Virus record (IMG/VR): IMGVR_UViG_3300046693_000004
Coordinates: 1 to 59,395 of that record
DNA length: 59,395 nt
Reading direction: 5' to 3' (one strand)
Origin: a virus
In this document: one piece after another, positions 1,930 through 51,928 of the stretch
Position numbering within the stretch: position 1 is the first letter of the stretch
Layout: each line of letters begins with the position of its first letter
Made by a program: the position numbers and the translations under genes
Notes under the pieces: model-generated
Databases searched by the model: none
What the model saw: only the letters and a program-made list of their open reading frames with translations
What the model was told of the DNA's origin: nothing

Positions 1930-2118
1930 CTACTTTTTGAAAATTTCTTTCATGTTGTTATAGAAGCTCATTTCGATAGCCGCCTCTTGCAACGGTGTAA
2001 GAACATACTCACCGGGGCACGGACCAGCTAAATCATAATCATGCCCACAAACTTGACAGAACGTCACATTCTTGTACGCATCATCGCGATATGTCGATAG
2101 TTTGTGGGCATATGGCAT
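1930..2118 (-). CDS. small zinc-ribbon-like protein (62 aa)
   Basis: Starts at the ATG of 2118 (MPYAHKLSTYRDDAYK), which overlaps the stop of the upstream membrane gene as TAATG. A longer frame reaches 2232, but its first 38 codons overlap a better membrane-protein frame. CQVCG and a later C-P-G form a possible zinc site. Role unknown. Confidence 0.55.
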   Translation of the reverse strand: MPYAHKLSTYRDDAYKNVTFCQVCGHDYDLAGPCPGEYVLTPLQEAAIEMSFYNNMKEIFKK

Positions 2119-4008: not shown

Positions 4009-4047
4009 CTTTCATTCTCCATTCATGTTCATTTGTGGGTATTGACT

Positions 4048-4932: not shown

Positions 4933-4952
4933 GGGTAGCATTTGCGCTACCC
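4933..4952 (-). other. short hairpin between two early genes
   Basis: Inverted repeat GGGTAGC / GCTACCC with a 6-nt loop, overlapping a TGTGGGTA site. It sits between the gene ending at 4962 and the ParB-like start. Could be a weak terminator; no U-tract. Confidence 0.35.
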
Positions 4953-4961
4953 ACAGATTAA

Positions 4962-7850: not shown

Positions 7851-8208
7851 TTTTAACACCTAAAAATCTATTCAAACCACTTCTATCAGTCTCGTAACGA
7901 GCTAAACCATGCTTTTTACCCAATTGACTAACAAATCCAGCACTAACACCATACTGCCCACAAATATCTTTCTGCGGTACTCCAGCCTTAAGCTTAGCAA
8001 TAATTACAGCACGAGTATCATCACTAATCAATTGTTTAGGACGCTTAGGCAAGCTAAATTGTCTAGCATAACGTAATACAGTTGTTCTGCTCATATCAAA
8101 TGCTGCTGCTATTTCTTCAACATTCTGACCACTTTCATATTTATTTAACATTTGTGTTGTGCGCTCAAAGCGGCGCATATGGTCAACTTGAACAGATAAG
8201 AAGCGCAT
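7843..8208 (-). CDS. double helix-turn-helix DNA-binding protein (121 aa)
   Basis: Two helix-turn-helix segments can be seen. The first is VEEIAAAFDMSRTTVLRYAR at about residues 31-50. The second is PQKDICGQYGVSAGFVSQLG at about 77-96, each followed by a basic stretch. This resembles homeodomain-like resolvase or transposase HTH repeats without a catalytic domain. A transcription regulator of the left operon, or a packaging-initiation protein, are both possible. A TGTGGGYA site (7955) lies inside the gene. Confidence 0.65.
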   Translation of the reverse strand: MRFLSVQVDHMRRFERTTQMLNKYESGQNVEEIAAAFDMSRTTVLRYARQFSLPKRPKQLISDDTRAVIIAKLKAGVPQKDICGQYGVSAGFVSQLGKKHGLARYETDRSGLNRFLGVKNG

Positions 8209-8782: not shown

Positions 8783-8881
8783 TCACAAATCCTGCCATCT
8801 ATGCCCACAAAGAGGCTGCTTGTCCAATCCGTAAGCTAGTACACCAACTATGATCATTGGAGCAAATATAAGTAATATCAT
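8783..8881 (-). CDS. single-helix membrane micro-protein (32 aa)
   Basis: 32 codons beginning with a hydrophobic helix (MILLIFAPMIIVGVLAYGL), then a short polar tail that holds a TGTGGGYA site. Starts in an ATGA overlap. Confidence 0.4.
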   Translation of the reverse strand: MILLIFAPMIIVGVLAYGLDKQPLCGHRWQDL

Positions 8882-9406: not shown

Positions 9407-9573
9407 TTGCTATTCCTTTCCAATTCCGTAGCTACTAATGTGGGTATTCTATTAATAATAATTCTAGAACCTTTCAAACTCGGCGCAACAGGCTGAAACT
9501 CAACGCGACCTTCAGCATAGATATTAAACCATTTATCATCATAGCTAAATTTGAATACAGGTATGTCATTCAT
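9403..9573 (-). CDS. small hypothetical protein (56 aa)
   Basis: 56 codons, MNDIPVFKFSYDDKWFNIYA start, a likely small beta protein. TAATG junction upstream, ATGA downstream. A TGTGGGTA site (9439-9446) lies inside. Confidence 0.5.
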   Translation of the reverse strand: MNDIPVFKFSYDDKWFNIYAEGRVEFQPVAPSLKGSRIIINRIPTLVATELERNSK

Positions 9574-9940: not shown

Positions 9941-10471
9941 TCATTCCACCTTCACACTAAGGCACCATTTTTGAATAATTTCTTTAGCAGCATGACCATT
10001 ATCAAGATAAGTATCTGGTGTCAATAGTCGTAATACTTGCCAACTAGTCGGGTAGTTCTCTTGCACGCGAGCCATCCATCGCAGTAGTTCGGGTTTGTCA
10101 TATTCACAAGATTTACCTTGAACCCCAATCAAGTAAGAAGGCACAACACTACTAAAACCAGCTAATGTAGGCAGATGATAAATATTCCAACCTTCATCCT
10201 TTTCCCCCGGCTCGCAAAAGTCAAGCCCCAAGTCACCAACTACGATAACAGGAATTGTTTTATTACCTAGTTTGATTGGACGGATTTCCCTTGTGCTTCC
10301 ATCAGATATTATATCTACACCATACATAATAACTGACTTGCCCACACTTACAGGCGCCATCCAAGGTGTTTTAGTTTTAAGCCTCTCTAGCCCCGGAGGT
10401 TCAGGTAATTCATCATCAGGCTTCCAATTTTCAATCTTCGGCTTATCACCCCATTCCTTTGACCAATTCAT
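9941..10471 (-). CDS. hypothetical phage protein (176 aa)
   Basis: 176-residue soluble protein, the largest in this part of the left arm. The start (MNWSKEWGDKPKIENWKPDD) is fixed by an ATGA overlap with the upstream micro-gene. It contains a beta-rich middle and a C-terminal helical tryptophan-containing part. I do not recognise a family. Confidence 0.6.
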   Translation of the reverse strand: MNWSKEWGDKPKIENWKPDDELPEPPGLERLKTKTPWMAPVSVGKSVIMYGVDIISDGSTREIRPIKLGNKTIPVIVVGDLGLDFCEPGEKDEGWNIYHLPTLAGFSSVVPSYLIGVQGKSCEYDKPELLRWMARVQENYPTSWQVLRLLTPDTYLDNGHAAKEIIQKWCLSVKVE

Positions 10472-12214: not shown

Positions 12215-12579
12215 GCTAGAATGAGACTAAGGTGAAAACAAAATTGAGAGAACAAAACGTGAATATTTGTAGCTTCATTGTATACCCACACATAGGCTGT
12301 TTACGGGCTTTTTCTGCGAAAAGTCCCTCTCTCACTTACTTATCTATTAATATAATATAATATATTATTATTTATTATTATTACATACATATAGGTACAA
12401 TGATACAAGCAGTTACAATTGTACCGACTTGCATCGTTGTACCGCCCTCCCTTCCCCCTCCAGAGCCCTAAACATTATACAACATTAAACTCATTGAAAT
12501 CGTTGAAGAAAATCATTATACTTGTGAGTTAATGTCGACTTTTGCAATAGATTTTGACATTTTTGTGGGCACAAAATGC

Positions 12580-14637: not shown

Positions 14638-14771
14638 TGCGATATCATGGTGCTAATCGCTACTCAGTCTACCAACTCTACGCATTTGTAGTCTGTAGGC
14701 AGCATGATAAATATGGTGAAAGTGTACATAGCTATTGGAGCTATTGCGTCTACCCACAGGAGAAGAAATGA
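14637..14771 (+). CDS. micro-protein (44 aa)
   Basis: 44-codon frame starting MRYHGANRYSVYQLYAFVVC, tyrosine-rich, ending in an ATGA overlap. A TGTGGGYA site (14751) lies near its end. Unrecognised. Confidence 0.4.
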   Translation: MRYHGANRYSVYQLYAFVVCRQHDKYGESVHSYWSYCVYPQEKK

Positions 14772-14947
14772 AGCATTCTGTACAACGTCAATATATACTA
14801 AGCCAAGATGAAGTTAAATGTGCTATTTATGATTATCTTAAGAAAATGGATAAGCCTATCCCTGAAAATTTTAATAAACTTGAGTATGCTTGGAATGGGC
14901 ATAAAGAATGTCATGTGGATTACAATGACGTAATTATTACTCCCTAA
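14768..14947 (+). CDS. small hypothetical protein (59 aa)
   Basis: Start at 14768 set by the ATGA overlap (MKHSVQRQYILSQDEVKCAI). Soluble, helix then beta. Its last 11 bases overlap the 3' end of the convergent primase gene, so the two transcripts collide here. Confidence 0.55.
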   Translation: MKHSVQRQYILSQDEVKCAIYDYLKKMDKPIPENFNKLEYAWNGHKECHVDYNDVIITP

Positions 14948-17237
14948 GCAAACTCAAATCCTTCAACACATAGCTCTTCTGCGTTGTCCCATATTTACTA
15001 CCTAATTCCATCTTCCCAATCTCTCTAATTGTATCAGCATCGCAAAGGGTGCTGATACATCTTTTTATGGCTATAGTGCTACCCATCTTGTCATTCTTGA
15101 ATGATGCTTGTGCCACTAGCCGTCTATTCAGATAGCTACCAGTCAATATCTTATCATCATAGAGCTTCTGTGGCACCTTGTATTTAGTTATCACTTCTGG
15201 ATTATTGTAGTATTCTCGTATCATTCGCTTCATTTCATCTAGCTGCTTAAGCTCCCCTGTGTTGGCGCCAATTTCGCCCATTTCAAACCGTGAGCTAAGC
15301 ACTCGAATATCGTTGGACACTAGCTCCATTGCCCATTGAACGTACTCAGGTGTCACTACAGGCTCAATGGGGTTCACTCCTACAGCTATCAAGGCAGAAA
15401 TCTTCAACGTCTTCATGTGGGCACGGTTCCACAACTGTCTGATGAAATCTTTATCGTTGGCATTCACTTTATCTGTTGCAAATATTTGATATTGGCGTAG
15501 AAGCTTGTCCGCAGCTTCATTGCATTGGACATTCACAACTCTGTTAGCGTGCATTATGCTTTCAGATTGAGCACATAGCGATGAAAACTGATCTACAAGC
15601 TGAAAGTTAGGCTCTACGTTGATAGCATTTTCATTAAGATAGGGAACTTTTCCCTTGTATTCGATTATTAAGAACCTAGGTAGTAAGCCAGCGGAAACCA
15701 TATCCTCATTGAGAACGTTGTAGAACGTCTCAGGAGTGCTTTCAGCAAGGATAGTAAACGCGGGTGCTCTAGTTTCGCTGATGTTCTTTTCTTTATCGGA
15801 GTAGATTGACGGTCGGAAGGATTGGTGATGTCCAGATTTATTGTACAAATCGAGCATGATCCGCAGCAAGTTCTTCTCACTGCCATTAGCATGAGGGTTG
15901 CTAATGCTTTGAAGACGAATGCCAAACTCGCCCAATATGCTCACAAAGCAGGGGTGAGTATTAATATACTTGACAAGAGCTTGACCGCTGGCGATTTCGG
16001 CCGGGCCTAAAAATCCGGCTGAAGTTGGCACCTGTAGCTTTACGCTGTTCATTAACTTATCAATGCCGCTAGCCATTGTCTCTTTACCGGCACCAGTTTG
16101 AGCAATCAGAATAACGTACTGATTAAGTCCTGTGCCTGAAATATTATAAGCCTTACCGCAAATTCCAGCCATCAAGCCAATAGCACCAGCGATAGCAATT
16201 TCTGGTACTTGACGTGGTGAGCTATCGTAGATGAATTGAGCTATCACTCCCATTAAGCCGGGCGGAAGTGATATGGTTGATTTATAATATGTGGGTATAG
16301 CTGGAACCATATGTTCATTAACAGACACAGGAACAGTAATGTTTTCAATTTGTTTCGGCTTTGTCCTGAACTGTTCTAGCGCCACCTTAAATCCATCAAT
16401 ATCAATAGGTGGCAACATTTGATCAAATGATTTTCTAATCATCCAATTTACATAATCATTACGCTTAGCCTTCGGTCTAGCTCCTAATGGAGATTGACGA
16501 AACATCCTAGCAATCTGTGTTTCATTTTGTGTATAGAATGCAAACATATTAATTAGTGCAAGATCAGCTTCGGATTGTGATTGATACAAATCCTGCCAAT
16601 GACCTTTATACAGTAAATTAAATTTATCACCATTCACAGCACCTTTAGCCATATCAACAATGGCAACATCAGTAGCTAATTCAGGTGCGTTACCATTATA
16701 TTGAATTGTTTGCGGAGTGCCAGCACCCATTTGCTCATAGAGCATTGTAAGCTTGTCTTGATGATCGCGAATAGGAGCCGAATTATATACATTCCCTGTC
16801 ATAGTAGCATAGCGACCAGATGAATATAATTCAATCTTTGATCGCCTACGACCTTGTGGTATCTGCCCACGAATAATAATATGCAAGCCTATGCCTGAAG
16901 GTGAGACTTCAGCATAGCTATCAAACTCACGGAAGATTTTTAATTGACGTTCGGTAACAGTAGGATCGCCCAAAGGGTCATCGAGATCAATAAAAGTATA
17001 TGGGTCATTTTCCGAAAAGACGAATCCAATGCCTGAATAAGAAAAACGGCTGGCAAGTGCGCCGTCAAAAGTAGTCCAAGTGTCTGGATTGTTAACATTT
17101 GCCATTTCTCCACTCACGGAGTACGGTACTTTAGTTGGTTTGGCAGCACCAATATCTTCATAACGCCATAAGACAAATTGCTTAAGTTGGCGCAATTCTT
17201 CAGGTATATTATAGTATGGACGTAGAATATCGTTCAT
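14937..17237 (-). CDS. NrS-1-like primase-polymerase fused to helicase (766 aa)
   Basis: Residues 1-155 form an archaeo-eukaryotic primase (PrimPol) domain. The metal site is FIDLDD (D84, D86), SPSGIGLH (112-119) supplies the catalytic His, and ELYSSGRYATMTG (136-148) follows. The wording and order closely recall the deep-sea phage NrS-1 primase-polymerase. A PriCT-like helical domain follows (about 221-269, with MFRQSP and KRNDYV). The C-terminal half is a DUF3987-type ATPase with Walker A TGAGKET (381-387). Such enzymes start DNA chains without a primer at short template motifs and unwind DNA. It lies on its own leftward unit with a small RHH-like gene. It is the obvious candidate reader of the TGTGGGYA sites. 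Confidence 0.85.
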   Translation of the reverse strand: MNDILRPYYNIPEELRQLKQFVLWRYEDIGAAKPTKVPYSVSGEMANVNNPDTWTTFDGALASRFSYSGIGFVFSENDPYTFIDLDDPLGDPTVTERQLKIFREFDSYAEVSPSGIGLHIIIRGQIPQGRRRSKIELYSSGRYATMTGNVYNSAPIRDHQDKLTMLYEQMGAGTPQTIQYNGNAPELATDVAIVDMAKGAVNGDKFNLLYKGHWQDLYQSQSEADLALINMFAFYTQNETQIARMFRQSPLGARPKAKRNDYVNWMIRKSFDQMLPPIDIDGFKVALEQFRTKPKQIENITVPVSVNEHMVPAIPTYYKSTISLPPGLMGVIAQFIYDSSPRQVPEIAIAGAIGLMAGICGKAYNISGTGLNQYVILIAQTGAGKETMASGIDKLMNSVKLQVPTSAGFLGPAEIASGQALVKYINTHPCFVSILGEFGIRLQSISNPHANGSEKNLLRIMLDLYNKSGHHQSFRPSIYSDKEKNISETRAPAFTILAESTPETFYNVLNEDMVSAGLLPRFLIIEYKGKVPYLNENAINVEPNFQLVDQFSSLCAQSESIMHANRVVNVQCNEAADKLLRQYQIFATDKVNANDKDFIRQLWNRAHMKTLKISALIAVGVNPIEPVVTPEYVQWAMELVSNDIRVLSSRFEMGEIGANTGELKQLDEMKRMIREYYNNPEVITKYKVPQKLYDDKILTGSYLNRRLVAQASFKNDKMGSTIAIKRCISTLCDADTIREIGKMELGSKYGTTQKSYVLKDLSLLRE

Positions 17238-17271: not shown

Positions 17272-17451
17272 TTATGAATTGATTAATTCTGCTAATCGCT
17301 TATCAGATACTCTTGTTACTAATACAGCTTTTAAAACATCAGACAACGAAAGTCTTTTGCCTGTCATATTCTCTAAATTCTTACGCAATTGAATTAGATC
17401 AGGAACAATATTCTCGCCGATCAAAGAAACATTAATACGATTTGTGGGCAT
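17272..17451 (-). CDS. RHH-like small DNA-binding protein (59 aa)
   Basis: 59 codons starting ATGCCCACA, one of the five gene starts that overlap a TGTGGGYA site. The layout RINVSL..E...DLIQLRKNLENMTGKRLSLSDVLKAVL matches a strand followed by two helices, as in ribbon-helix-helix repressors. It lies directly upstream of the primase gene and faces the divergent promoter region at 17452-17717. An autorepressor of this region is a reasonable inference. Confidence 0.55.
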   Translation of the reverse strand: MPTNRINVSLIGENIVPDLIQLRKNLENMTGKRLSLSDVLKAVLVTRVSDKRLAELINS

Positions 17452-17717: not shown

Positions 17718-18029
17718 ATGAAAGATGACCACGAAGATTTGAAAGATAGAAGCACCACACCTTTCAATGAAACTAAGGAATATAAAGAAAAGATTGCTGA
17801 AGGCATGGAGGCAATTAATAGACGTAGCAGCGTTGCCCAACTTGTACCCACAAAATCAGATGCTGAATTAGCTAATGAGCTTAAGGAAAAGGTAGCCGAA
17901 GCTTATAAGCCTTTCCTTGAACTTTTAAATGAATATGATAAGCATGGCTTAAATGTGCAAGCTGGTGTCGGTAAGAACGCATTTGGTAAATATGCAATTG
18001 TGCAGTTGCAAGTGATTAAGGTGTTTTAG
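17718..18029 (+). CDS. hypothetical phage protein (103 aa)
   Basis: 103-residue helical, charged protein; first gene of the replication operon, with AAAGGA upstream. The last base of its TAG stop is also the first base of tRNA-Thr, so tRNA processing would cut the mRNA at this stop. Unrecognised. Confidence 0.6.
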   Translation: MKDDHEDLKDRSTTPFNETKEYKEKIAEGMEAINRRSSVAQLVPTKSDAELANELKEKVAEAYKPFLELLNEYDKHGLNVQAGVGKNAFGKYAIVQLQVIKVF

Positions 18030-18603: not shown

Positions 18604-18803
18604 CACCCGGCGATGCAAATGTAGTATCAAATCTAAGGCGTCAATTAAAAGAAGCTGTGGCTATTTATACAGATAAGCAGCTTGCTGATGCTTGGCGAAA
18701 TTTTAGTCAGTCTGAAGACTATCCTGAAATGGAAAAATTTATAGACTGGATTGAACCCACGGAAGACCAAGGCGAAGATGTACTAGGACTTAAGCCAGAA
18801 TGA
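18600..18803 (+). CDS. small acidic protein (67 aa)
   Basis: 67 residues, starting in an ATGA overlap and ending in another one. Acidic C-terminal half (EPTEDQGEDVLGLKPE). Between the 160-aa gene and the Sak4-like ATPase. Unrecognised. Confidence 0.55.
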   Translation: MTPGDANVVSNLRRQLKEAVAIYTDKQLADAWRNFSQSEDYPEMEKFIDWIEPTEDQGEDVLGLKPE

Positions 18804-19465
18804 ACCTCTCTGACCTTAAACCAGCTTCAACATACGCTAATATGAGTGGATTAAAAGCCATTGTATATGGTCCTCCGGGTAGTGGAAAAACGCCTGTGTT
18901 CAACACAGCCACTAGACCATTACTGTTAGCTTGCGAGCCGGGTCTATTATCAATGCGAGGCTCGCAAGTACCTACCTTTCAAGCTCATACACCAGAAGCG
19001 CTAGATGATTTTTTTAAATGGTTATTCTCTAGCGCAGAGACTAAAAATTTTGATACTGTTGGTGTTGACAGTGTAAGCCAATTAGCTGATGTATATTTAC
19101 AGGCTGCTTTAAAAAAGCATAAGCATGGTTTGCAGGCATATGGAGAAATGGCAGAAAAGGTTATGGATATTCTACGTCCATTATTCTTTTTAAAAGAAAA
19201 ACATTGTTATTTAATCTGCAAGCAAACTATTGAAGCTGGAGTAATGAAGCCTTACTTTTTAGGAAAACAATTACCTACAGAAGTACCTCATTTATATGAT
19301 GCTATTTTGCATCTTGGGCTTCATAACGTGCCTCAAGTTGGACAAGTGCAGAGCTTCCAAACTAAACAAAGTTATGATATACTCGCGCGAGATAGAAGCG
19401 GTAGATTAGCTGAATTTGAACAACCTGATTTCGGTGCAATTATTAGAAAGGCGATGCAGACATGA
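18800..19465 (+). CDS. Sak4-like RecA-fold ATPase (221 aa)
   Basis: Walker A is GPPGSGKT at residues 24-31 and a Walker B-like TVGVDSVSQL follows. Length (221 aa) and the short N-terminus before the P-loop fit the Sak4 family of phage single-strand annealing ATPases, often sited near an SSB gene as here. It should help strand annealing and recombination-dependent replication. The residue after the P-loop Thr is Pro, which is uncommon. ATGA overlaps couple it to both neighbours. Confidence 0.75.
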   Translation: MNLSDLKPASTYANMSGLKAIVYGPPGSGKTPVFNTATRPLLLACEPGLLSMRGSQVPTFQAHTPEALDDFFKWLFSSAETKNFDTVGVDSVSQLADVYLQAALKKHKHGLQAYGEMAEKVMDILRPLFFLKEKHCYLICKQTIEAGVMKPYFLGKQLPTEVPHLYDAILHLGLHNVPQVGQVQSFQTKQSYDILARDRSGRLAEFEQPDFGAIIRKAMQT

Positions 19466-19882: not shown

Positions 19883-20182
19883 ATGAATGATGATGAAATT
19901 GAAAAAGAAATTCAAGCTAAGGGTTTGAATGCGCCGCGCCTTAATCCTGCAAAAATTATGGCTACAATTCTTGCAGAACAATATTATGTATTTCCCGGAA
20001 CCGTAATGACAGTTTGTTGTCTTACACTTCAAAATGGCTATAATGTTGTGGGTACAAGTGCACCCGCCTCTCCTGAAAATTTTGATAAAGAAATGGGAGA
20101 AAAGATTTCTAAAACCAAGGCTCAGGACCAGATTTGGGCACTTGAAGGTTACTTGTTGAAATCAAAGCTGAAAGGACAGTAA
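19883..20182 (+). CDS. hypothetical phage protein (99 aa)
   Basis: 99 residues. The central part (TVMTVCCLTLQNGYNVVGTSAPASPENFDKEMG, in pieces) and the ending AQDQIWALEGYLLK fit a common phage family related to the T4-like Gp49 / DUF-type proteins of unknown function, as far as I recall. Soluble. It sits in the replication operon. Confidence 0.6.
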   Translation: MNDDEIEKEIQAKGLNAPRLNPAKIMATILAEQYYVFPGTVMTVCCLTLQNGYNVVGTSAPASPENFDKEMGEKISKTKAQDQIWALEGYLLKSKLKGQ

Positions 20183-20416: not shown

Positions 20417-21094
20417 ATGCAACCCTATAACTTTGATGCTACTAATATCACACCGCAACAAGGTGCTGGCGCACATCCAGCCGGTATGTTTCCATTTGTA
20501 ATTACTAATACATTTGGACAAGATACCAAGGCTAAGGATGGTGCTATGCTTTGTGTAGTGATGACTTCCAATGTTGGGAGTATCACCAATCGCTACAATA
20601 TTTTCAATGCTAGCGAAGCTGCAATGGAGATTGCCAAGAAAGAGCTTAGCGCATTGTGCCATGCAACTGGTGTATTTGTGTTGACTATTGTTGATGGTAA
20701 TAACCAGTTGCTTCCTTATGACCAATGGGCACGTGAAATTCGTAACGCTCGCGGTGTGATGGAAATTGGGCCGCAAGCCAACGACCCAAAATACATGGAA
20801 GTTAAAAAGGTTTATGACCAAGCCGGTAATGAACCCGGTAAATCTCCCGGTGCAGCACCACAGCCACAGGGGCAAGGTGGTGGCGGTAGTTGGGGTGCTG
20901 GTGCTCCTGCTCAGAATAACCCGCCAGCCTCTACAGGCGGTCAGGGAGGGGCTTGGGCACCTAATTCGGGTAGCAATCCTCCAGCCAATAATCCCCCTGC
21001 TCAGGGAGGCTGGCAACCCGGCCCAACTGGCGGTGCTCCTGCTAGTGGTGGCGCTCCCGGCAATCCGCCTTGGGCTGGTGGTGGTCAGAAGTAG
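20417..21094 (+). CDS. SSB-like protein (DUF669 type) with Gly/Pro-rich tail (225 aa)
   Basis: Residues 1-135 (MQPYNFDATNITPQQ... MFPFVITNTFGQDTKAKDGAMLCVVM, in pieces) follow the DUF669-type phage single-strand DNA-binding protein pattern. From about residue 135 to the end it is a low-complexity Gly/Pro/Gln/Asn linker. The tail ends WAGGGQK rather than the acidic tip of bacterial SSB, so it may not recruit host partners in the usual way. It lies close to Sak4, as in other phages. A terminator follows. Confidence 0.65.
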   Translation: MQPYNFDATNITPQQGAGAHPAGMFPFVITNTFGQDTKAKDGAMLCVVMTSNVGSITNRYNIFNASEAAMEIAKKELSALCHATGVFVLTIVDGNNQLLPYDQWAREIRNARGVMEIGPQANDPKYMEVKKVYDQAGNEPGKSPGAAPQPQGQGGGGSWGAGAPAQNNPPASTGGQGGAWAPNSGSNPPANNPPAQGGWQPGPTGGAPASGGAPGNPPWAGGGQK

Positions 21095-21197: not shown

Positions 21198-21401
21198 ATG
21201 ATTAAATATATTTTAATAGTGTTGTATATAATTGCCATACCTTTTAGTTATAGTGGTTGCTTAGGATATTTTATGACTAAATACCCTTCTTCTATTATTC
21301 AGGAAGAAAGAGCTTTTTGTACTATGATAACCATATGGCCTCTTGGTCCATTTATTGTGCCATTTCACACTGGTTTTTATTATAGAGGCTTTATGCTGTA
21401 A
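21198..21401 (+). CDS. small membrane protein (67 aa)
   Basis: 67 residues with two hydrophobic stretches (YILIVLYIIAIPFSYSGCLG and MITIWPLGPFIVPFH). AGGAG precedes the ATG. It ends TAATG into the nuclease gene. Membrane location inferred; role unknown. Confidence 0.55.
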   Translation: MIKYILIVLYIIAIPFSYSGCLGYFMTKYPSSIIQEERAFCTMITIWPLGPFIVPFHTGFYYRGFML

Positions 21402-22309
21402 TGCCCACAATCACCCTCAATTCAGATGGCTCATTTCCACTTCAGGAAATAACAGCAGAGCTATATAAGCTCACTGATGAATATAGCATTGAAACTTATC
21501 CAGCAAAGCATCGTGAACATTTAGGTGCGTCGGCTATTGGTGAAGAGTGTTATCGTAAGCTCTATTATGATTTCCGTTGGGTTAAACTTCAGAATGCCGA
21601 ACCTCGAATGCGTCGATTGTGGGCAAGGGGACATAGTGAAGAAGAGAAAATTGATAAGATATTAACTTGGATGGGTTTCTTTGTTCGCGAGATTGATCCT
21701 GTAACTAATAAACAATATAAATTTAGTGCTGTAGAGGGTCACTATGGAGGGTCGGGGGATGGCATTGCATTGCTACCTTGGTTTAGGGAAGATGATAGTA
21801 AGCGAATATTAGTTGAAAAGAAAACGTTTAAAAATGATTTATTTAATAAGCTAAAGGGTGCCTACAATCAAGAGAAGACTAAAGGAATTGGTGAAGGATT
21901 AATTACGAGCAATCCGAAATATTGGGCACAGCAATGTGCATATGGCCGCGCTTTCAAGCTAAACTATTCATTATTCATCGCAGTCAATAAAGACAATGAC
22001 GAAATTCATTATGAATTAAACAAACTGGATTGGGATTATGCTTTACTATTGGAGAATAAAGCTAGGGATGTTATTTACGCGAAAGAGCCACCAGCTAGGA
22101 TTTCAGAGAACCCCGTATTTTATAAATGTAAATGGTGTCATCATCAGGACGTATGTCACCACGGAGAAGTTGTAGAGACTAATTGCCGATCTTGTAAGAT
22201 GGCAGTACCGGCTCCTAATGGGGAATGGGGGTGCAATAAGTTTAATATGTTGATACCGGAAGACTTCATCAAGGTTGGTTGTGAGCACCATCAGAGTGTA
22301 AATGAATAG
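21401..22309 (+). CDS. Cas4/RecB-type PD-(D/E)XK exonuclease (302 aa)
   Basis: Motifs in order: SAIGEECYRKLYYDFRW (first cysteine, as in Cas4-like proteins), RGHSEEEKI, GGSGDGI (catalytic Asp), VEKKTF (E-x-K) and YWAQQCAYGRAF (Gln/Tyr motif). Then cysteines CKWCHHQDVCHH and later CRSC...C may bind an iron-sulfur cluster or zinc. It should be a DNA exonuclease for recombination or replication. The start ATGCCCACA overlaps a TGTGGGYA site and the upstream stop (TAATG). Confidence 0.8.
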   Translation: MPTITLNSDGSFPLQEITAELYKLTDEYSIETYPAKHREHLGASAIGEECYRKLYYDFRWVKLQNAEPRMRRLWARGHSEEEKIDKILTWMGFFVREIDPVTNKQYKFSAVEGHYGGSGDGIALLPWFREDDSKRILVEKKTFKNDLFNKLKGAYNQEKTKGIGEGLITSNPKYWAQQCAYGRAFKLNYSLFIAVNKDNDEIHYELNKLDWDYALLLENKARDVIYAKEPPARISENPVFYKCKWCHHQDVCHHGEVVETNCRSCKMAVPAPNGEWGCNKFNMLIPEDFIKVGCEHHQSVNE

Positions 22310-22316: not shown

Positions 22317-22637
22317 ATGGACGATAAGGACATTCCAGTTACAGCATTAAATCCTTGGCATCCTGTAACTAATGCCATAGACTTAAAAATTCTAGGAAAG
22401 CTTGGTGAAGAAGTAAATGAATTAGGTTCCGCTATTTCACGCTGCATTATTCAAGGTGTAGATGAATGCGAGCCAGTTACTAAAAAGCCTAATAAGGAAT
22501 GGTTAGAGAACGAAATTGCTGATGTTAAAGCAGGAATATTCTTGACCGAAGAACGCTTTGCTTTAGATAAGGAACGAATTACAGCTAGAGCAAGAGCTAA
22601 GATTAGTGCGCTTAGGCAGTGGCATTACATGGCATGA
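22317..22637 (+). CDS. MazG-like nucleotide pyrophosphohydrolase-fold protein (106 aa)
   Basis: The string KLGEEVNELGSAISRCIIQG with the later ENEIADVKAG gives the EExxE...ExxD metal-binding layout of the MazG/dUTPase all-alpha NTP pyrophosphohydrolases. The phage variant probably trims nucleotide pools or alarmones. Length is short but typical. The end overlaps the helicase start (ATGA). Confidence 0.7.
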   Translation: MDDKDIPVTALNPWHPVTNAIDLKILGKLGEEVNELGSAISRCIIQGVDECEPVTKKPNKEWLENEIADVKAGIFLTEERFALDKERITARARAKISALRQWHYMA

Positions 22638-24241
22638 TTGAATTAAGACCATACCAAGCAGAAGGATTAACCGCTTTGTGGGATTATTTCGCACAAGGGA
22701 ATAAAGGTAATCCTCTCATAGCTTGGCCTACAGGAACAGGGAAGAGCATAGTACCTGCAATCTGGATTCGCTACGTAATGGGCCAATGGCCTAATCAGCG
22801 TTTCTTAATGATAACGCATGTGAAGGAGCTTATTCAGCAGAATTATGATGTTCTTAGAATGGTGTGGCCTAACGCACCAGTCAGTATTTATTCAGCAGGA
22901 TTAGGCTTAAAAAATCCTGCAATGCCGATTGTGTTTGGTGGCGTGCAGTCAATGTGCAAACACCCTGCTATATTCGGTTGGCGGGATATTATTTTTATTG
23001 ACGAAGCTCATTTAATTAATCAGCATGATACAAGCATGTATAAAACATTCTTGTCTACAATGAAGTTGATTAACCCAAATGTAAAAATCATAGGAATGTC
23101 TGCAACTCCCTTCAGAATGGGTTGGGGACTGATTACCGATCCATTGGTAGATGAACATGGAAACGATGGACGACTATTTACCGATATTGTTCACGATATT
23201 ACTGAAATGGAATCATTCAATCGTCTTATCGCAGAAGGATATATATCGCCACTTATTCCTGTTCGCACTCATGAAGAGTTAGACATTACAGGAGTAGGTG
23301 TTAATGGTGGTGAATATATTCAAAGTCAGCTTCAAGCGGCTGTTGATAAGCAAGACCTTAATTATAAAATCTGCCAAGAAATAACAGCAGTAGGAGCTAA
23401 TAGACGTTGCTGGTTAACGTTTGCATCAGGTATTGATCATGCAGAGCATTTAGCAGAAAATTTTAGAAGTTTTGGTATTAGTGCTGCTGCCATTCACTCA
23501 AAGCAGAAATCAGAATACAATGACGAAGCTATCAAGGATTTTAAGAACTTCAAGCTTCGCTGTATTATCAATTATGGTAAGCTGACTACAGGATTTAATC
23601 ATCCTCAAATAGATTATATCCCGATGGTGCGCGCTACACTCTCTGTTCCTTTGTGGGTACAGATGCTAGGACGTGGCACTAGACCAGCAGAAGGCAAAAT
23701 TAACTGCTTGGTAGGCGATTATGCGCGAAATACGCCTCGTCTAGGGCCTATCAATGACCCTGTAATTCCTAGAAAAAAAGGTGAGGGTGTTGGCGATGTG
23801 CCCGTCAAGTTGTGTGATAGTTGTGGCGCTTATAATCATACTCGTGTACAATTCTGTTGCCAATGCGGGAATGAATTTCAATTTAGGAATAAGCTTGTCG
23901 CTAAAGCTGGTACACAAGCGTTATTAAAAAGTGACATTCCAGAAATTATAGATTATAATGTCACCTATCCTACGTATGCGAAGAAGATGGGTAAAAGTGG
24001 TGGCGAATATATACTAGTAACTTACCATTGCGGCGCACATGCATTTAAGGAATTTATTTTTCCTGAAGGCAAAGGATCGCTAAAGCATAAATATCACCTA
24101 TGGTGGAGGCAGCGCGCAAATATCCCGCCTCCTGAGACTGTAGATGGTGTAATTAGTCATGCTAAGGAATTAATGAAGCCTAAGACTATATCGGTATGGG
24201 CGAATAAAAAATTTCCTGAAGTTATGAGAAGTGAGTTTTGA
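22634..24241 (+). CDS. SF2 DEAH-box DNA helicase (535 aa)
   Basis: Start at 22634 set by an ATGA overlap (MIELRPYQAEG). Walker A TGTGKS (33-38), DEAH box IDEAH (122-126) and motif III SAT (156-158) are in order. Motif VI-like QMLGRGTRP appears near residue 350. A four-cysteine zinc ribbon (CDSCG...CCQCG) follows at about 393-412, then a C-terminal domain of about 120 residues. This is the RadD/UvsW-like layout seen in phages. It should unwind or remodel replication forks. Next to a nuclease and a MazG-like gene. Confidence 0.85.
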   Translation: MIELRPYQAEGLTALWDYFAQGNKGNPLIAWPTGTGKSIVPAIWIRYVMGQWPNQRFLMITHVKELIQQNYDVLRMVWPNAPVSIYSAGLGLKNPAMPIVFGGVQSMCKHPAIFGWRDIIFIDEAHLINQHDTSMYKTFLSTMKLINPNVKIIGMSATPFRMGWGLITDPLVDEHGNDGRLFTDIVHDITEMESFNRLIAEGYISPLIPVRTHEELDITGVGVNGGEYIQSQLQAAVDKQDLNYKICQEITAVGANRRCWLTFASGIDHAEHLAENFRSFGISAAAIHSKQKSEYNDEAIKDFKNFKLRCIINYGKLTTGFNHPQIDYIPMVRATLSVPLWVQMLGRGTRPAEGKINCLVGDYARNTPRLGPINDPVIPRKKGEGVGDVPVKLCDSCGAYNHTRVQFCCQCGNEFQFRNKLVAKAGTQALLKSDIPEIIDYNVTYPTYAKKMGKSGGEYILVTYHCGAHAFKEFIFPEGKGSLKHKYHLWWRQRANIPPPETVDGVISHAKELMKPKTISVWANKKFPEVMRSEF

Positions 24242-24909: not shown

Positions 24910-25923
24910 ATGGGCCGTAAACCAAATAAAATCAAAACTACAAACCCTTTCCTTGAGGCTATTCAATTTGTTGGTACTGCTTTAAAAGAAACTGGCACAG
25001 CCTACGAGACACACATCTATCTCAACAACAATTGGGCTATAGCTAACAACGGTGTTCTAGCTGTAGGATGTCCTATTAGCTGGCCTAACATCGCCACGCC
25101 TAATTATAGCTTATTCGCTGCTGCCTTGTCTAAGTGTGGGTCAGATTGGGAAATAGCTGTTATAGCACCACCGCTTGATGCTGACCCAACATTAAAACAC
25201 ACGTCCAAATTACGAATTAGCCAAGGTAAATTTCGCGCCTTCATTCCTTGCTGCGATCCAATCACTATTGTTTTGCCCACAATTGACCAGCCGATAGCGG
25301 CTATCAATAACAATTTTCGCACTGGAATTGAAAAAGTTTCGATGCTTGCTAATGACAATGGTCAATCTGTAATTGAAGCATCTATTTTAATGAATGGTCA
25401 ATCGCTTATAGGTACAGACAGAACTATTATTATTGAATATTGGCATGGATGCAACTTACCGCCCGGTTTAGCTCTACCTAAAGCTTTTGCTGTAGCATTG
25501 TGTAAGATATCTAAAAATCTTGTATCTTTTGGATTTAGCGCAAATAGCGCCACTTTCTACTTTGAGGATAATAGTTGGATTAAGACACAGCTGTTTAGTG
25601 AAAGCTGGCCAGATGTAAATGCAATCATGGCTAGAGGCTCAAATCCTCAACCTATTCCGAAGGGATTATTTGATGCAGTTAAAACTATTGAATCTTTCTC
25701 ACCGGATAATTTGGTTCACTTTGATGCTGGCATACTGCGCTCCCATTCTAATTCTGATACTGGCGCTAGCTTTGAAGTATCAGGGTTGCCTAAAGGGCCT
25801 ATTTTCAACATCAAATATTTAAAGCTAATTGAAAATCTAGCTACTAGCATTGATTTCTTTGCTGGTAATGCTACGTTGTTTTTTGGTGAATCGGTCAGGG
25901 GCGCTATCGCAAATAGGGTGTAG
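24910..25923 (+). CDS. sliding-clamp-like protein (337 aa)
   Basis: The layout looks like repeated clamp-type domains. An N-terminal part has NWAIANNGVLAVGCPI. A middle domain reads EASILMNGQSLIGTDRTIIIEYW then LPPGLALPKAFAVALCKI. A later part reads FGFSANSATFYFEDNSWIKT and SWPDVNAI. These strings recall DnaN beta clamps in short form. Sited two genes before the DNA polymerase, a processivity factor is a good inference, but I see no peptide that proves it. Length is slightly under the 360-380 of bacterial DnaN. Confidence 0.5.
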   Translation: MGRKPNKIKTTNPFLEAIQFVGTALKETGTAYETHIYLNNNWAIANNGVLAVGCPISWPNIATPNYSLFAAALSKCGSDWEIAVIAPPLDADPTLKHTSKLRISQGKFRAFIPCCDPITIVLPTIDQPIAAINNNFRTGIEKVSMLANDNGQSVIEASILMNGQSLIGTDRTIIIEYWHGCNLPPGLALPKAFAVALCKISKNLVSFGFSANSATFYFEDNSWIKTQLFSESWPDVNAIMARGSNPQPIPKGLFDAVKTIESFSPDNLVHFDAGILRSHSNSDTGASFEVSGLPKGPIFNIKYLKLIENLATSIDFFAGNATLFFGESVRGAIANRV

Positions 25924-25927
25924 GGAA

Positions 25928-26086
25928 ATGAAGGGTGATAAAACTAAGCAACCAACAGAATGTAGAATAGATGAAGAAAATAAATGCTTAAATATGAAAT
26001 GCAGTTATGAAGGATACGATAAAGAAACTTATCGCTGCGATATTTGCGGCGAAAGTTATAATTTATATTACTATGATATGCAGTAA
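25928..26086 (+). CDS. zinc-ribbon small protein (52 aa)
   Basis: 52 residues from ATG 25928, with TAGGGAA upstream. Four cysteines (CLNMKC...CDICG) give a likely zinc ribbon. Ends TAATG into the polymerase gene. Unrecognised beyond the ribbon. Confidence 0.5.
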   Translation: MKGDKTKQPTECRIDEENKCLNMKCSYEGYDKETYRCDICGESYNLYYYDMQ

Positions 26087-28017
26087 TGCCCACACTTAAT
26101 GCTGATGGCTTCCTAACAACTTCGCGCAAGGTTGAACTACAGCCATATCAACCACGCGAGCTAATCCTGTGGCAGGAAATGACAGATGAAGATATTCGTA
26201 GCAATTCTGGCGATCTTATTTTTGATTCTGAGTGCTACACTAACTATTATTTGGCCGCGTTTAAACATATTACCACAAACAAAATTATCAAGCTTGTACC
26301 GCCTTTTGATCCTAGGAAGCTTAGCTATATTCTTCATTCTTACAATTGCATTGGCTTTAATTCGATAAAGTATGATTTACCTTTATTGTGGGCAGCATAT
26401 AAAAATCAGAATTTAGGCTTCTTAAAGCAAGTTTCTAATGATCTAGTGCGCGGCGAATGGTATCAGGAAGTTTGCAAGGTTCACGGAATAGTAGTTCATC
26501 AAACTCCTAATATTGACCTTATTGAGGTTTGTCCAAATAAAGGTAGCCTTAAGCTCTATGCAGCACGTTTGCATGTACAACGTATTCAAGAGCTTCCATA
26601 TCATCATATGGATATTCTTGACGAGCAACAAAAATTAGTTGTAGCAGATTATTGTATTAATGGGGATTTACCAGCTACAGAATTGATATTTAAATTCAAT
26701 AAAGATCGCTTAGAACTTCGCCGCTATCTTGGTATAAAGTATCAAGATAATCTTATGAGCAAATCAGACGCTCAGATGGCAGAAGCAATTGTTGTTAAGG
26801 AGTTGACGCGAAAGACTGGCAAGCGACCGAAGAAAGCAGACTTAACGGAAGAATATAATTTTTACTATCAACCTCCTACATACCTACAATTCAGGACACC
26901 ACAGCTACAAGAATTGTTAGCCTCGATCACTACCCATAAATTCACTCTTGACGACATAGCCAGAATTAAGGTTCCTGAGTTTCTTAAGAGTAGTGAGGGT
27001 AAAGGAGTTACATTAAGCATTAAAGATTTCTCTTGTACATTTGGAATTGGTGGACTTCATAGTAAGGAAAAGACAGTAGCTTATAAAGCAGAAAACAGTT
27101 ATTTTATTTCAGATAATGATGCTGCGAGTTACTACCCGGCTATCATTCGAAATCTTGGTTTATATCCTGAGCACCTAGGACCAATTTTCCTAGATGTTTT
27201 TAACGGAATGACTGAAGACCGCTTGCGCGCTAAAGCTCTTAAGCAATTTGCTGAAGACAAAGGGTTGAAGATCGCCATTAACGGCATTAGTGGAAAATAT
27301 AATTCAGAACACAGCGTAGTATTTTCGCCGCGATGCTATGTGCAGATGACACTTACCGGGCAGCTATCTATTCTGCTGCTCATAGAATATTTAGAGCATG
27401 AAGGTTTAAAAGTTATCAATGCTAATACAGATGGAATTGTTATTTACGGAAATAATTATGAATTATTAAGGCAAATTATAGCATATTGGGAAAGTCAAGT
27501 TAACTTCAAAACAGAAGAGACTTTTTATAAGGCGTATTACGCACGAGATGTGAATGCATATTTTGCTGTTAAGGAAACTGGTGAAGTCAAAGTTAAAGGT
27601 CCATACTCTGAAGTTGGTTCACAGACTGGAACACAGCTAGATAACAATCCAATTATGCTTATTTGCTCTGATGCTATTAAGAAGATGTTAAATGAAGGTG
27701 TGGAGATAGAGAAGACGATTATAGAATGTAAGGACATTACTCGATTTGTAACGGTGCGAAATGTCAAAGGTGGTGCCCACAAATCAGGACATTACTTAGG
27801 CAAAGTCATTCGCTGGTACTATGGCAAAGGTGAGCTAGGAACAATCAATTATGTTGAGACTAATAACAAAGTGCCAATGACTGAAGGCGCTATACCACTT
27901 ATGGACCTAGGAGATTTCCCAAGCGATCTAGATCACCAACGATACATTGATGAAGCTAAGGCGATCCTATATGATGTTGGATACCTAAAGCGATCACAGG
28001 AGGTTAAATTTTTCTGA
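26086..28017 (+). CDS. compact family B-like DNA polymerase with 3'-5' exonuclease (643 aa)
   Basis: Exonuclease motifs: FDSE (46-49), GFNSIKYDLP (90-99) and DYCINGDLPAT (188-198). Polymerase motifs: A is DNDAASYYPAII (343-354), B is KIAINGISGKYN (395-406) and C is NTDGI (447-451), all in family B order. Motif C has N-T-D-G instead of the usual D-T-D-S. A GIGGLHS string (320-326) precedes motif A, as in some phage polymerases. The protein is short for family B (643 aa). It is the replicative polymerase by context. The start ATGCCCACA overlaps a TGTGGGYA site. Confidence 0.8.
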   Translation: MPTLNADGFLTTSRKVELQPYQPRELILWQEMTDEDIRSNSGDLIFDSECYTNYYLAAFKHITTNKIIKLVPPFDPRKLSYILHSYNCIGFNSIKYDLPLLWAAYKNQNLGFLKQVSNDLVRGEWYQEVCKVHGIVVHQTPNIDLIEVCPNKGSLKLYAARLHVQRIQELPYHHMDILDEQQKLVVADYCINGDLPATELIFKFNKDRLELRRYLGIKYQDNLMSKSDAQMAEAIVVKELTRKTGKRPKKADLTEEYNFYYQPPTYLQFRTPQLQELLASITTHKFTLDDIARIKVPEFLKSSEGKGVTLSIKDFSCTFGIGGLHSKEKTVAYKAENSYFISDNDAASYYPAIIRNLGLYPEHLGPIFLDVFNGMTEDRLRAKALKQFAEDKGLKIAINGISGKYNSEHSVVFSPRCYVQMTLTGQLSILLLIEYLEHEGLKVINANTDGIVIYGNNYELLRQIIAYWESQVNFKTEETFYKAYYARDVNAYFAVKETGEVKVKGPYSEVGSQTGTQLDNNPIMLICSDAIKKMLNEGVEIEKTIIECKDITRFVTVRNVKGGAHKSGHYLGKVIRWYYGKGELGTINYVETNNKVPMTEGAIPLMDLGDFPSDLDHQRYIDEAKAILYDVGYLKRSQEVKFF

Positions 28018-33240: not shown

Positions 33241-33331
33241 TTTGACTTTAACCTTAATCTTCTTTCACGAATATATAAACTGGCAAATAATTATATATAC
33301 TGTACCCACAACTATAATAATCTTCTTAGCT

Positions 33332-35425
33332 TTAGAATTTGCCCGATTTCTCTCTAAGATAGTCCGTCAATGGTGTGCCAGTCAATACCGGCAATTTAGA
33401 CGTGATATCTTTAGCAGTAGTTATCTTACTACTTTGGACTTTCTCAATCTTGCCAAGCGCAGTCAACGCACTATCTCGCATAAGACCACTACGCGAAAAT
33501 AAATCAGCAGAACTTACAGCAAGATTATCACTTCCAATTTCCATTAATCTTTTCTTACCACCAATACCTATATTTCTAAGAGCCATAACACCAGAAGCAA
33601 CACCCGGACTACCAGTTGCTAAATCAGTAGCGAATCCCTTTACAGCGTCAGTAACAAAACCACTACTATCATTACGTTCGCCATACTTGCGTTGATAAGC
33701 TTGGCGTTCTGCTGTTTGAGCACCATGTCTAATTTCATTTTCTACTGCCCTAAATGTAATTGCTTTATGCAAATCATCTAAAACAGATTCAGCACTAGGG
33801 CCGAATGCATGTTTGAATATTTCTCTATTGGTGTCTTTCTTACCAAACAGTCTAGCTGCACCGCTCAATTGACCTTGTGCAGATTGCTCCATTAAATTAC
33901 CAGCAGCCGCAAGAATACCTTTCTTAATGCTTTCCTGTACTTCTGGAGTAGCAGCATCGAAAGTTCTAATAAACTCTGCCTTATTAACATTTTTAGCAAT
34001 TGCATCATGACCAATTACTAAACCGTCCTTAATTTTCATTTTTTCGGAAAATTTAGTATCAGCAGCTAACATTTGAGGATTGGTTTTAATTTCAGCGTCC
34101 AATAGCTTACGTGTATTCTCTACAGAGGCTAAAGCCTTTGGAGGTAACTTATCCGCAGTTTTATTGATTATATCGTCTATGCCTTCTCTTACCTCATGTA
34201 AGTCTTTCACACTAGTTTTTAATGATCCATCTTTTTTGTAAAAGAATCCTTTAATCTTTTCTAAAACAGCAGCCTTATCACCAACAGCAGTTTCTAAATT
34301 GTCATCAATATGACTGAGTACACCAGAAGCATCTAGCTTTTGAGGAGATGTGTGGGCAGCACTATAATCAGCTTTTGTTAAAGTTCTAGCTTCAGTAGTA
34401 ATATTATCCGCTTCTGTACCTTTAGCCTTACCGCGTTCTACATAAACATCAGGCTTTGCACCAAATTTATTTTCAAATATTTTTACAGCATCAACATTAG
34501 CAGTAGCAGCGCGATCAGCAAAAGCACCTTTTAATATTGCTGTAGGCTTGCCACCAAATGAAGCTAATCCGCTTGCTTCAGCAGATAAGGAAGGGTCTAA
34601 ATCTGCAATAGTGGCTTTTGATCCCATTTGCCTTAAAGCAATAGCTGCTTCTTCTGGTGTATAACCAGCATCTTTTAAAGAACCAATAATATTTTTAGCA
34701 GCACTAGGGGGCATTCCAACTTCATTGGCTAATCTGGACACTGATAAATTAGCCCAAGAATTACCCATTGCAGATAAGGCTTTAGAAATACCAACTACTG
34801 CACCATGAGTAAGCGGACCAGCTACAACGCCAGTAGCAGCACCAATACCAATATCTACAGGTAATGAAGTTTCAGGACGCGCCGAATTGGTTAAGGCGTT
34901 AAATTCACCACCAGCAATACCACCTTGTAACCCCATTGCACCAACACGATTAATCAATGGTGCAGCAATTTTCTCACCGCTAGAAAGCATTGTAGGTAAA
35001 GCACGTGCTACTACATTTGCGCCTTGCATTATCCTAGCTGGCACTAAAGGCGCTGTAGCTGCGATTTGACCACCAATGCGGCCTATATCCGCTGTTGTGC
35101 TATCTGGATAAGTATTTTTATAGTCTTCCTGTTCTTTAACTACACGCTTATCAAAATTAGCCGCCCTTTCCTCACCACCGAGAGCTAATTTTCTATCAAC
35201 ATAACCGATTCCTTTACCCACAGTATTAAGAACGTCATTGACACCTTGGGTAAATCCACCAACAGCTTTATTAGTAAAACTAGGTTCTACAGCAGCAGCT
35301 TCAACTGCTTGAGTTTTAGGCGTAGAGAATTGCTTATATAACGATTCTACATCAACGCCAGATTTATCAGGCGATTTAGTAGAATTACCACTAAAATAAT
35401 TATATAAGTCATCAACTTCAGCCAT
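33332..35425 (-). CDS. internal virion / DNA ejection protein, gp16-like role (697 aa)
   Basis: 697 residues: a disordered polar N-terminus, alanine/glycine-rich hydrophobic stretches (GAMGLQGGIAGGEF, IGIGAATGVVAGPLTHGAVVG) and a long charged helical C-terminal half. Position after the gp7- and gp20-like genes matches the third P22 ejection protein, which helps move DNA across the envelope. The family is too divergent to prove. Starts in an ATGA-like overlap at 35425. Confidence 0.6.
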   Translation of the reverse strand: MAEVDDLYNYFSGNSTKSPDKSGVDVESLYKQFSTPKTQAVEAAAVEPSFTNKAVGGFTQGVNDVLNTVGKGIGYVDRKLALGGEERAANFDKRVVKEQEDYKNTYPDSTTADIGRIGGQIAATAPLVPARIMQGANVVARALPTMLSSGEKIAAPLINRVGAMGLQGGIAGGEFNALTNSARPETSLPVDIGIGAATGVVAGPLTHGAVVGISKALSAMGNSWANLSVSRLANEVGMPPSAAKNIIGSLKDAGYTPEEAAIALRQMGSKATIADLDPSLSAEASGLASFGGKPTAILKGAFADRAATANVDAVKIFENKFGAKPDVYVERGKAKGTEADNITTEARTLTKADYSAAHTSPQKLDASGVLSHIDDNLETAVGDKAAVLEKIKGFFYKKDGSLKTSVKDLHEVREGIDDIINKTADKLPPKALASVENTRKLLDAEIKTNPQMLAADTKFSEKMKIKDGLVIGHDAIAKNVNKAEFIRTFDAATPEVQESIKKGILAAAGNLMEQSAQGQLSGAARLFGKKDTNREIFKHAFGPSAESVLDDLHKAITFRAVENEIRHGAQTAERQAYQRKYGERNDSSGFVTDAVKGFATDLATGSPGVASGVMALRNIGIGGKKRLMEIGSDNLAVSSADLFSRSGLMRDSALTALGKIEKVQSSKITTAKDITSKLPVLTGTPLTDYLREKSGKF

Positions 35426-43317: not shown

Positions 43318-43350
43318 AGAAGGCGAATGCTGCAATCTACCCACAAATGA

Positions 43351-51862: not shown

Positions 51863-51928
51863 AAAATCATTTCATAATTAGCCAAACAGTGAAAATGTTA
51901 AAAATTGCCCACAATTTAAGGAATGTCA

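What the first reader, a model, noticed from the sequence alone, without database searches (positions are those of the whole stretch)
14937..17237. NrS-1-like PrimPol-helicase on its own divergent unit
The 766-aa protein keeps the FIDLD..., SPSG.GLH and SGRY motifs of the NrS-1 type primase-polymerase and adds a PriCT-like part and a DUF3987 ATPase. It sits alone with a small RHH gene, opposite in direction to the replication operon, and three TGTGGGYA sites lie in this unit (15416, 16290, 17443). A phage with both a PrimPol and a separate family B polymerase could start DNA chains with no RNA primer.
Basis: partly seen in the sequence, partly recalled or inferred. Interest (0 to 1): 0.7.

Follow-up and report, generated by a model that had tools for sequence, protein, structure and literature searches.

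The report
Phage PrimPol with genome-wide priming sites
The gene is a member of a known phage primase-polymerase family, but the short DNA word noted beside it recurs 46 times around the whole phage genome, spaced out separately on each strand, and most likely marks where this enzyme starts new DNA chains; the same is true of about a hundred related phages.

Summary
The 766-aa ORF is real: an NrS-1-type PrimPol (catalytic domain plus helix-bundle domain, HBD) fused to an MCM-like AAA+ ATPase, not DUF3987. It is an ordinary member of phrog_3022 (relatives in hundreds of phages, many also carrying the family B polymerase). The new result is in the TGTGGGYA sites. They are not a feature of this unit: the 59.4-kb genome holds 46 (3 expected; 13.5 after synonymous shuffling). 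In all 18 phage genomes examined with a full-length PrimPol of this type TGTGGNYA is 3 to 18-fold over-represented; 10 genomes without one show at most 2-fold. The sixth letter (G, or T/C/A) follows PrimPol phylogeny, not host. Same-strand sites avoid each other within about 1 kb while opposite-strand sites are independent, so each single strand carries its own ruler. NrS-1 PrimPol primes at GTGG and TTTGGTTA in vitro (published). Best explanation: TGTGGNYA sites are the PrimPol's template recognition sites and set Okazaki-scale priming positions on both strands. Phylogeny does not separate PrimPol from the co-inherited DEAD helicase as reader; biochemical precedent does. Priming here, and RNA-free starts, are inferred, not shown. 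I found no earlier report of the array.

The parts
14937..17237 (-). PrimPol-helicase gene, 766 aa (phrog_3022)
16698..17225 (-). AEP catalytic domain, about aa 5-180; D84, D86, S112-P-S114, H119, Y143 match NrS-1 D78, D80, S108-P109-S110, H115, Y146
   Evidence: alignment (NrS-1 numbers there are 2 lower because the annotated start lies 2 aa upstream); fold; NrS-1 SPS loop and Y146 from PMC8718748
16413..16685 (-). helix-bundle domain (HBD), about aa 185-275; R254, K256, Y262 correspond to NrS-1 R249, K251, Y261, needed for priming there; R254 and K256 invariant in alignment A3
   Evidence: PF22763; alignments; PMC8718748
15273..16262 (-). MCM-like AAA+ ATPase, about aa 326-655 (Walker A around G384-K385, Walker B around E437)
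   Evidence: (Z 16-18 to MCM chains), conserved residues
17272..17451 (-). small RHH-like gene upstream of PrimPol, 59 aa; start codon overlaps a TGTGGGCA site
18800..19465 (+). Sak4-like annealing protein (replication module)
20417..21094 (+). SSB-like protein (replication module)
21401..22309 (+). Cas4-domain exonuclease (replication module)
22619..24241 (+). DEAD/ResIII helicase (replication module; co-occurs with PrimPol)
24910..25923 (+). DNA polymerase processivity factor
26086..28017 (+). family B-type DNA polymerase
   Evidence: (phrog_1252)
2042..2049 (-). TGTGGGCA site
2103..2110 (+). TGTGGGCA site
4034..4041 (+). TGTGGGTA site
4948..4955 (-). TGTGGGTA site
7955..7962 (-). TGTGGGCA site
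8802..8809 (-). TGTGGGCA site
9439..9446 (+). TGTGGGTA site
10339..10346 (-). TGTGGGCA site
12283..12290 (-). TGTGGGTA site
12564..12571 (+). TGTGGGCA site
14751..14758 (-). TGTGGGTA site
15416..15423 (+). TGTGGGCA site (in PrimPol gene)
16290..16297 (+). TGTGGGTA site (in PrimPol gene)
17443..17450 (+). TGTGGGCA site (start of RHH gene)
17845..17852 (-). TGTGGGTA site
20047..20054 (+). TGTGGGTA site
21402..21409 (-). TGTGGGCA site (start of Cas4 gene)
21618..21625 (+). TGTGGGCA site
23652..23659 (+). TGTGGGTA site
25274..25281 (-). TGTGGGCA site
26087..26094 (-). TGTGGGCA site (start of PolB gene)
26387..26394 (+). TGTGGGCA site
27774..27781 (-). TGTGGGCA site
32325..32332 (-). TGTGGGTA site
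33303..33310 (-). TGTGGGTA site
34351..34358 (+). TGTGGGCA site
35215..35222 (-). TGTGGGTA site
36760..36767 (+). TGTGGGTA site
37748..37755 (-). TGTGGGTA site
39741..39748 (-). TGTGGGTA site
41294..41301 (-). TGTGGGTA site
41625..41632 (+). TGTGGGTA site
43338..43345 (-). TGTGGGTA site
43879..43886 (+). TGTGGGCA site (start of gene 43441-43887)
45014..45021 (-). TGTGGGCA site
48572..48579 (+). TGTGGGCA site
50171..50178 (+). TGTGGGCA site (start of portal gene)
51906..51913 (-). TGTGGGCA site
52034..52041 (-). TGTGGGTA site
55490..55497 (-). TGTGGGTA site
56145..56152 (+). TGTGGGTA site
56732..56739 (+). TGTGGGCA site
56747..56754 (-). TGTGGGCA site
58350..58357 (-). TGTGGGCA site
58546..58553 (-). 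TGTGGGTA site
58852..58859 (+). TGTGGGCA site

Best explanation
The gene encodes a replicative primase-helicase (NrS-1-type PrimPol + HBD + MCM-like AAA+ ATPase). Its HBD reads TGTGGGYA on single-stranded template. The phage genome carries these octamers at Okazaki-scale steps (mean 2.3-3.0 kb) on each strand, so that wherever a strand is laid bare as lagging-strand or displaced template, the PrimPol lays a primer just 5' of GTGG and the phage's family B polymerase with its processivity factor extends it. Shown here: protein family, fold and key residues; the over-representation; its dependence on the PrimPol module across phages; its strand-specific spacing. Taken from published work: NrS-1 PrimPol primes at GTGG and at TTTGGTTA, starting at the first base 5' of the site, with dNTPs.
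For: 46 sites against 3.1 by dinucleotide shuffling and 13.5 +/- 2.1, maximum 19, after synonymous-codon shuffling; strict octamer, almost only TGTGGG[CT]A among one-letter variants. Across 18 phage genomes with full-length PrimPol of this type TGTGGNYA is 3.1-18.5 times expected; in 10 genomes with none, or with only a distant N-terminal relative, 0.6-2.0. Of 111 viral contigs found by PrimPol alone, 100 have more than twice expected, in 60 it is the top octamer of all, in 82 among the top 5; several of the outliers still show a GTGG word, L193/L194 TTGTGGGG, L217 CGTGGTCA. Letter 6 (G versus T/C/A) splits the PrimPol tree with one change and is not set by host: Pseudomonas phages Ab26 (G) and NP1 and Baskent (T/C/A) differ. 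Published recognition: GTGG best, TTTGGTTA, initiation 5' of the site (PMC8718748). Strand-specific spacing: pairs within 600 bp, same strand 9, opposite 109; equal-abundance control words show no exclusion; replicated on 84 contigs, 977 sites: under 1 kb same strand 123 against 317 expected, opposite 322 against 323; strand-label shuffles, combined p 7e-27. Window alone: 7 same-strand pairs within 1 kb against 17.2 expected, p 0.002. The 1-kb floor equals the shortest Okazaki fragments cited for T7 (PMC12839067).
Against: No binding or priming was measured for this protein. NrS-1 itself shows only weak TGTGGNYA enrichment (21 against 7) and two TTTGGTTA sites (PMC7102993), so an array is not needed by every NrS-1-type PrimPol. 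A few contigs (L010, L169, L002) and some integrated prophages show little enrichment. Some gaps are long (up to 8 kb on one strand in the window).
Confidence: 0.8

Rival explanations
1. The sites are operators or stoperators of a phage regulator (the RHH protein at 17272-17451, or an HTH counterpart), binding double-stranded DNA throughout the genome to silence transcription, as in cluster A mycobacteriophages.
For: A small DNA-binding gene sits just upstream of PrimPol in most relatives, and a site overlaps the RHH start codon.
Against: The small gene changes family (RHH-like in the window, L126, L127, L131, L168; HTH-like in many; unrelated in SLUR63 and JenK1) while the GTGG octamer stays. 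Same-strand exclusion with free opposite-strand placement is not expected of a double-strand binder. Sites lie mostly inside genes, 19 sense and 21 antisense.
Confidence: 0.05
2. Another protein of the co-inherited replication module (DEAD helicase, processivity factor, SSB, Sak4, Cas4 or PolB) reads the sites, for example as Chi-like recombination or fork-restart signals.
For: DEAD helicase and processivity factor are found with PrimPol wherever the module is covered here, and the DEAD tree also fits the letter-6 split. Chi sites are likewise short, oriented and over-represented (general knowledge).
Against: Cas4 is absent from phiAxp-1, PolB of this type not detected in Baskent, Vib1207B and Vib033B, Sak4 not detected in Kharn, yet all have the array. 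No Chi sequence known to me shows a same-strand exclusion zone of Okazaki size (general knowledge). The motif core is the published NrS-1 PrimPol recognition sequence.
Confidence: 0.12
3. The excess is compositional or codon-driven, or marks a host-imposed or DNA-modification motif.
For: Some relatives carry modified guanines, as phage 9g does (PMC5567051).
Against: Synonymous shuffling gives 13.5, not 46; shuffles give 3; the motif is the same across hosts from Acinetobacter and Pseudomonas to Rhodobacter and Sphingomonas and differs between phages of one host genus; spacing is strand-specific.
Confidence: 0.03

Closest known systems
NrS-1 phage primase-polymerase (PDB 6a9w, 6k9a; PMC8718748, PMC7102993)
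   Same: AEP catalytic fold and HBD (Z 20 over residues 5-275); catalytic, SPS-loop, Y146 and HBD R249/K251/Y261 counterparts conserved; its recognition core GTGG is contained in TGTGGGYA
   Different: C-terminal motor resembles MCM AAA+ here and SF3-like helicase in NrS-1 (PMC7102993); NrS-1 has 2 copies of its 8-nt site, this phage has 46; NrS-1 has no PolB of this type
phrog_3022 phage 'DNA primase / replicative primase-helicase' (Septimatrevirus Ab26, Kilunavirus KL1, Titanvirus, Queuovirinae)
   Same: Full-length homologues (about 49% identity to Septimatrevirus), same divergent unit and replication module
   Different: Nothing essential; those phages turn out to carry the same kind of array, not described in the papers searched
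pRN1 ORF904 primase with HBD (GTG motif)
   Same: HBD reads GTG on the template (cited in PMC8718748); encoded with a small transcriptional repressor gene (PMC4234260)
   Different: Archaeal plasmid, three-letter motif, zinc-finger AEP
T7 gp4 primase sites (PMC12839067)
   Same: Short template words define priming; proposed sites about 1-6 kb apart
   Different: T7 primase is TOPRIM type and makes RNA (general knowledge); its proposed active sites cluster and depend on flanks; no over-represented octamer with a same-strand exclusion zone is reported in the section read

Membership tests
NrS-1-type PrimPol (AEP with HBD) | AEP catalytic residues DxD and H, SPS loop | tested here: met
   D84, D86, H119, S112-P113-S114 align with NrS-1 D78, D80, H115, S108-P109-S110
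NrS-1-type PrimPol (AEP with HBD) | fold of catalytic domain and HBD | tested here: met
   AlphaFold2 model pLDDT 85.6; NrS-1 N300 chains at Foldseek E 1e-13 and Z 20; PF22763 E 2e-9
NrS-1-type PrimPol (AEP with HBD) | HBD residues needed for priming | tested here: met
   R254, K256, Y262 correspond to R249, K251, Y261
NrS-1-type PrimPol (AEP with HBD) | primer synthesis with dNTPs at specific template words | not testable with these tools
   needs purified protein
   no PF13148 hit to E 0.1 for this protein
MCM-like AAA+ ATPase | MCM AAA+ fold over residues 326-655 | tested here: met
   MCM chains at Z 16-18, rmsd about 3.6 A, 250-275 residues; helicase activity not tested
Stoperator/operator array of a phage repressor | constant cognate repressor | tested here: not met
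   the small upstream gene switches family between relatives that share the octamer
Stoperator/operator array of a phage repressor | placement tied to transcription direction or gene ends | tested here: not met
   19 sense, 21 antisense, 6 intergenic
Primase template recognition sites | short strand-specific ssDNA word with a primase precedent | tested here: met
   strand-specific spacing; GTGG precedent
Primase template recognition sites | nascent 5' ends at the sites | not testable with these tools
   needs in vitro or in vivo end mapping

The most novel reading that the evidence does not exclude
A widespread group of tailed phages hard-codes its Okazaki fragment starts: each strand of the genome carries a ruler of PrimPol recognition octamers (TGTGGNYA) with a minimum spacing near 1 kb, and the octamer's letter 6 co-evolves with the PrimPol module.
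Probability: 0.72. Interest if true: 0.9.

Novelty: new variant of a known kind. Interest (0 to 1): 0.82.

Why it matters
Primase recognition words are usually so short that their positions in a genome say little. Here the word is eight letters long, counted in tens, strand-specific and evenly spaced, so priming positions can be read straight from sequence. That would make lagging-strand site choice, Okazaki length control and PrimPol-to-PolB handover testable in ordinary laboratory phages (for example JenK1 or SLUR63 in E. coli, Ab26 in Pseudomonas), and it offers PrimPols with predictable and apparently different site specificities for DNA amplification tools.

Tried and rejected
Local role of the three sites in this unit: rejected, sites are spread over the whole genome. 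RHH or HTH reader: rejected. Cas4/Chi-like reader: disfavoured by phiAxp-1. Discriminating PrimPol from DEAD helicase by tree: did not work, both fit one or two changes. Looking for specificity residues in the HBD: many columns differ between the G and H groups (positions 271, 239, 275 and others), but the split is essentially one old branch, so no residue can be singled out, and the HBD is no more divergent between the groups than other domains. Array in NrS-1: weak only. DUF3987: no Pfam match; its absence from the fold list was not used as proof. Defence-system link: none for this protein. Literature searches for the octamers in phage papers found nothing relevant, but only open-access PMC text is held.

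Full report
What is there. The ORF 14937-17237 on the minus strand is a 766-aa protein. It belongs to phrog_3022, annotated as DNA primase (E 1e-225), with 455 phage records holding a relative, the best at about 49% identity over the whole length, among them Septimatrevirus 'replicative primase/helicase'. Sequence search against solved structures finds NrS-1 primase-polymerase and a 797-residue DNA primase, 7ola. An AlphaFold2 model (30 homologues, mean pLDDT 85.6) matches NrS-1 N300 over residues 5-275 (Z 20) and MCM-type AAA+ motors over residues 326-655 (Z 16-18). Catalytic D84, D86, H119, the SPS loop, Y143 and the HBD residues R254, K256, Y262 line up with residues of NrS-1 PrimPol, several of which were tested by mutation there (PMC8718748). 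The claimed DUF3987 is not found. The gene pairs with a 59-aa RHH-like gene and diverges from the replication operon, a layout shared with relatives. A family B-type polymerase in the same phage is common in these relatives. So the protein itself is an ordinary member of a known family, here in a P22-like phage (portal and coat matches).

The sites. They are part of 46 spread over the whole 59.4-kb window, 20 on plus and 26 on minus, where shuffles give 3.1. The two forms, TGTGGGCA (24) and TGTGGGTA (22), are the first and third most over-represented octamers when the two strands of each word are listed apart. Nearly all one-letter variants are at background, the exception being TGTAGGCA (11). 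Shuffling synonymous codons inside genes leaves 13.5 +/- 2.1. 40 of the 46 lie in genes, 19 sense and 21 antisense; five sit exactly on a start codon as A|TGCCCACA, where the ATG supplies two letters and the N-terminal Pro-Thr is presumably tolerated (the explanation is inference).

Link to the PrimPol. I collected complete or near-complete genomes of 18 phages (this one included) with a full-length PrimPol of this type, and 10 controls: four that share the P22-like portal, two that share PolB, and four with only a distant N-terminal PrimPol relative (RcKeef, one of the PolB controls, also has a weak partial match). TGTGGNYA is 3.1-18.5 times expectation in the 18 and 0.6-2.0 in the 10. Letter 6 is G in one set (Ab26, KL1, AH03, RcTitan, Kmi2C, Kharn, IMEAB3, FtMidnight, phiAxp-1, this phage) and T, C or A in the other (Baskent, two vibriophages, NP1, SLUR63, Salva, JenK1, MMDA13). 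Phages of one host genus differ and phages of distant hosts agree, so the host does not set it. In 111 viral contigs fetched through PrimPol searches, 100 exceed twice expectation and in 60 the family octamer ranks first of all octamers; of the outliers, two contigs use TTGTGGGG and one CGTGGTCA. On a tree of 113 PrimPols the T/C/A class is separated from the rest by one change.

Strand-specific spacing. If sites are single-strand templates, each strand should be served separately. Gaps on each strand are far more regular than random (combined p 3e-28), and strand labels matter: shuffling them over the same positions raises the irregularity (combined p 7e-27). Within 600 bp there are 9 same-strand and 109 opposite-strand pairs; against random placement same-strand pairs below 1 kb are strongly depleted while opposite-strand pairs are near expectation. 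Words of equal abundance in the same genomes show no such exclusion (no matched words were available in four genomes). An independent set of 84 contigs with 977 sites (not wholly independent of the 18, as a few are close relatives) repeats it: 123 same-strand pairs below 1 kb against 317 expected, 322 opposite against 323. In vibriophage 033B the plus-strand steps range only from 1,348 to 2,487 bp. The window's own array shows it too, more loosely (7 against 17.2, p 0.002).

Mechanism. NrS-1 PrimPol primes at TTTGGTTA and, more efficiently, at GTGG or GTGA, starting at the first base 5' of the site; HBD mutations impair priming (PMC8718748). TGTGGTTA, the SLUR63 form, differs from TTTGGTTA by one letter, and every form found contains GTGG. 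For T7, Okazaki fragments shorter than 1,000 bp are reported not to be seen and proposed active sites lie about 1-6 kb apart (PMC12839067). The simplest account is that TGTGGNYA is the template word of these PrimPols and that selection has set it at Okazaki-scale steps on both strands, so that forks or displaced strands in either direction can be primed, with PolB and its processivity factor extending. What is shown is the sequence signature and its association with the PrimPol module; that the PrimPol reads it is inferred from homology to NrS-1; that the primers are DNA is inferred from NrS-1 and the conserved tyrosine.

Novelty. PrimPol and primase recognition words are known. A genome-wide, strand-wise spaced octamer array coupled to a PrimPol family was not found in the papers I could search, which exclude most subscription journals. 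I therefore call it a new variant of a known kind, with high interest because it is directly testable.

Noticed in passing
window 4153 to 47730, 11 places: TGTAGGCA, one letter from the site, occurs 11 times against 1.7 expected; may be a weak variant or unrelated.
   Followed up: no
window 51929-54355: An 808-aa gene with 55% GC in a 40% GC genome, with a signal-like N-terminus and threonine/glycine-rich sequence: perhaps a recently acquired tail spike or fibre. Two same-strand sites only 128 bp apart (51906, 52034) lie at its edge.
   Followed up: partly
window 51059-51862: Terminase large subunit match in an ORF of only 267 aa: possibly split or interrupted.
   Followed up: no
window 4114-4908: ParB-like protein (phrog_1033, E 3e-34).
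   Followed up: no
window 17443, 21402, 26087, 43879, 50171: Five genes begin ATGCCCACA (Met-Pro-Thr), the start codon supplying part of a site; ATGCCCAC is also an enriched octamer in KL1, IMEAB3 and L011.
   Followed up: partly
L127, L126, L131, L168 upstream of PrimPol, against L003, L005, L015 and others: The small regulator paired with PrimPol alternates between RHH-like and HTH-like proteins among relatives, an apparent replacement of one repressor type by another at a fixed position.
   Followed up: partly
L070-L071 (NrS-1 genome): NrS-1's most over-represented octamer is GTTACACT/AGTGTAAC, 11 copies against 0.5; unexplained.
   Followed up: no
L003, L043-L045 (RcTitan): CCGCAGCC/GGCTGCGG is repeated 28-40 times; unexplained, unrelated to TGTGGGCA.
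   Followed up: no
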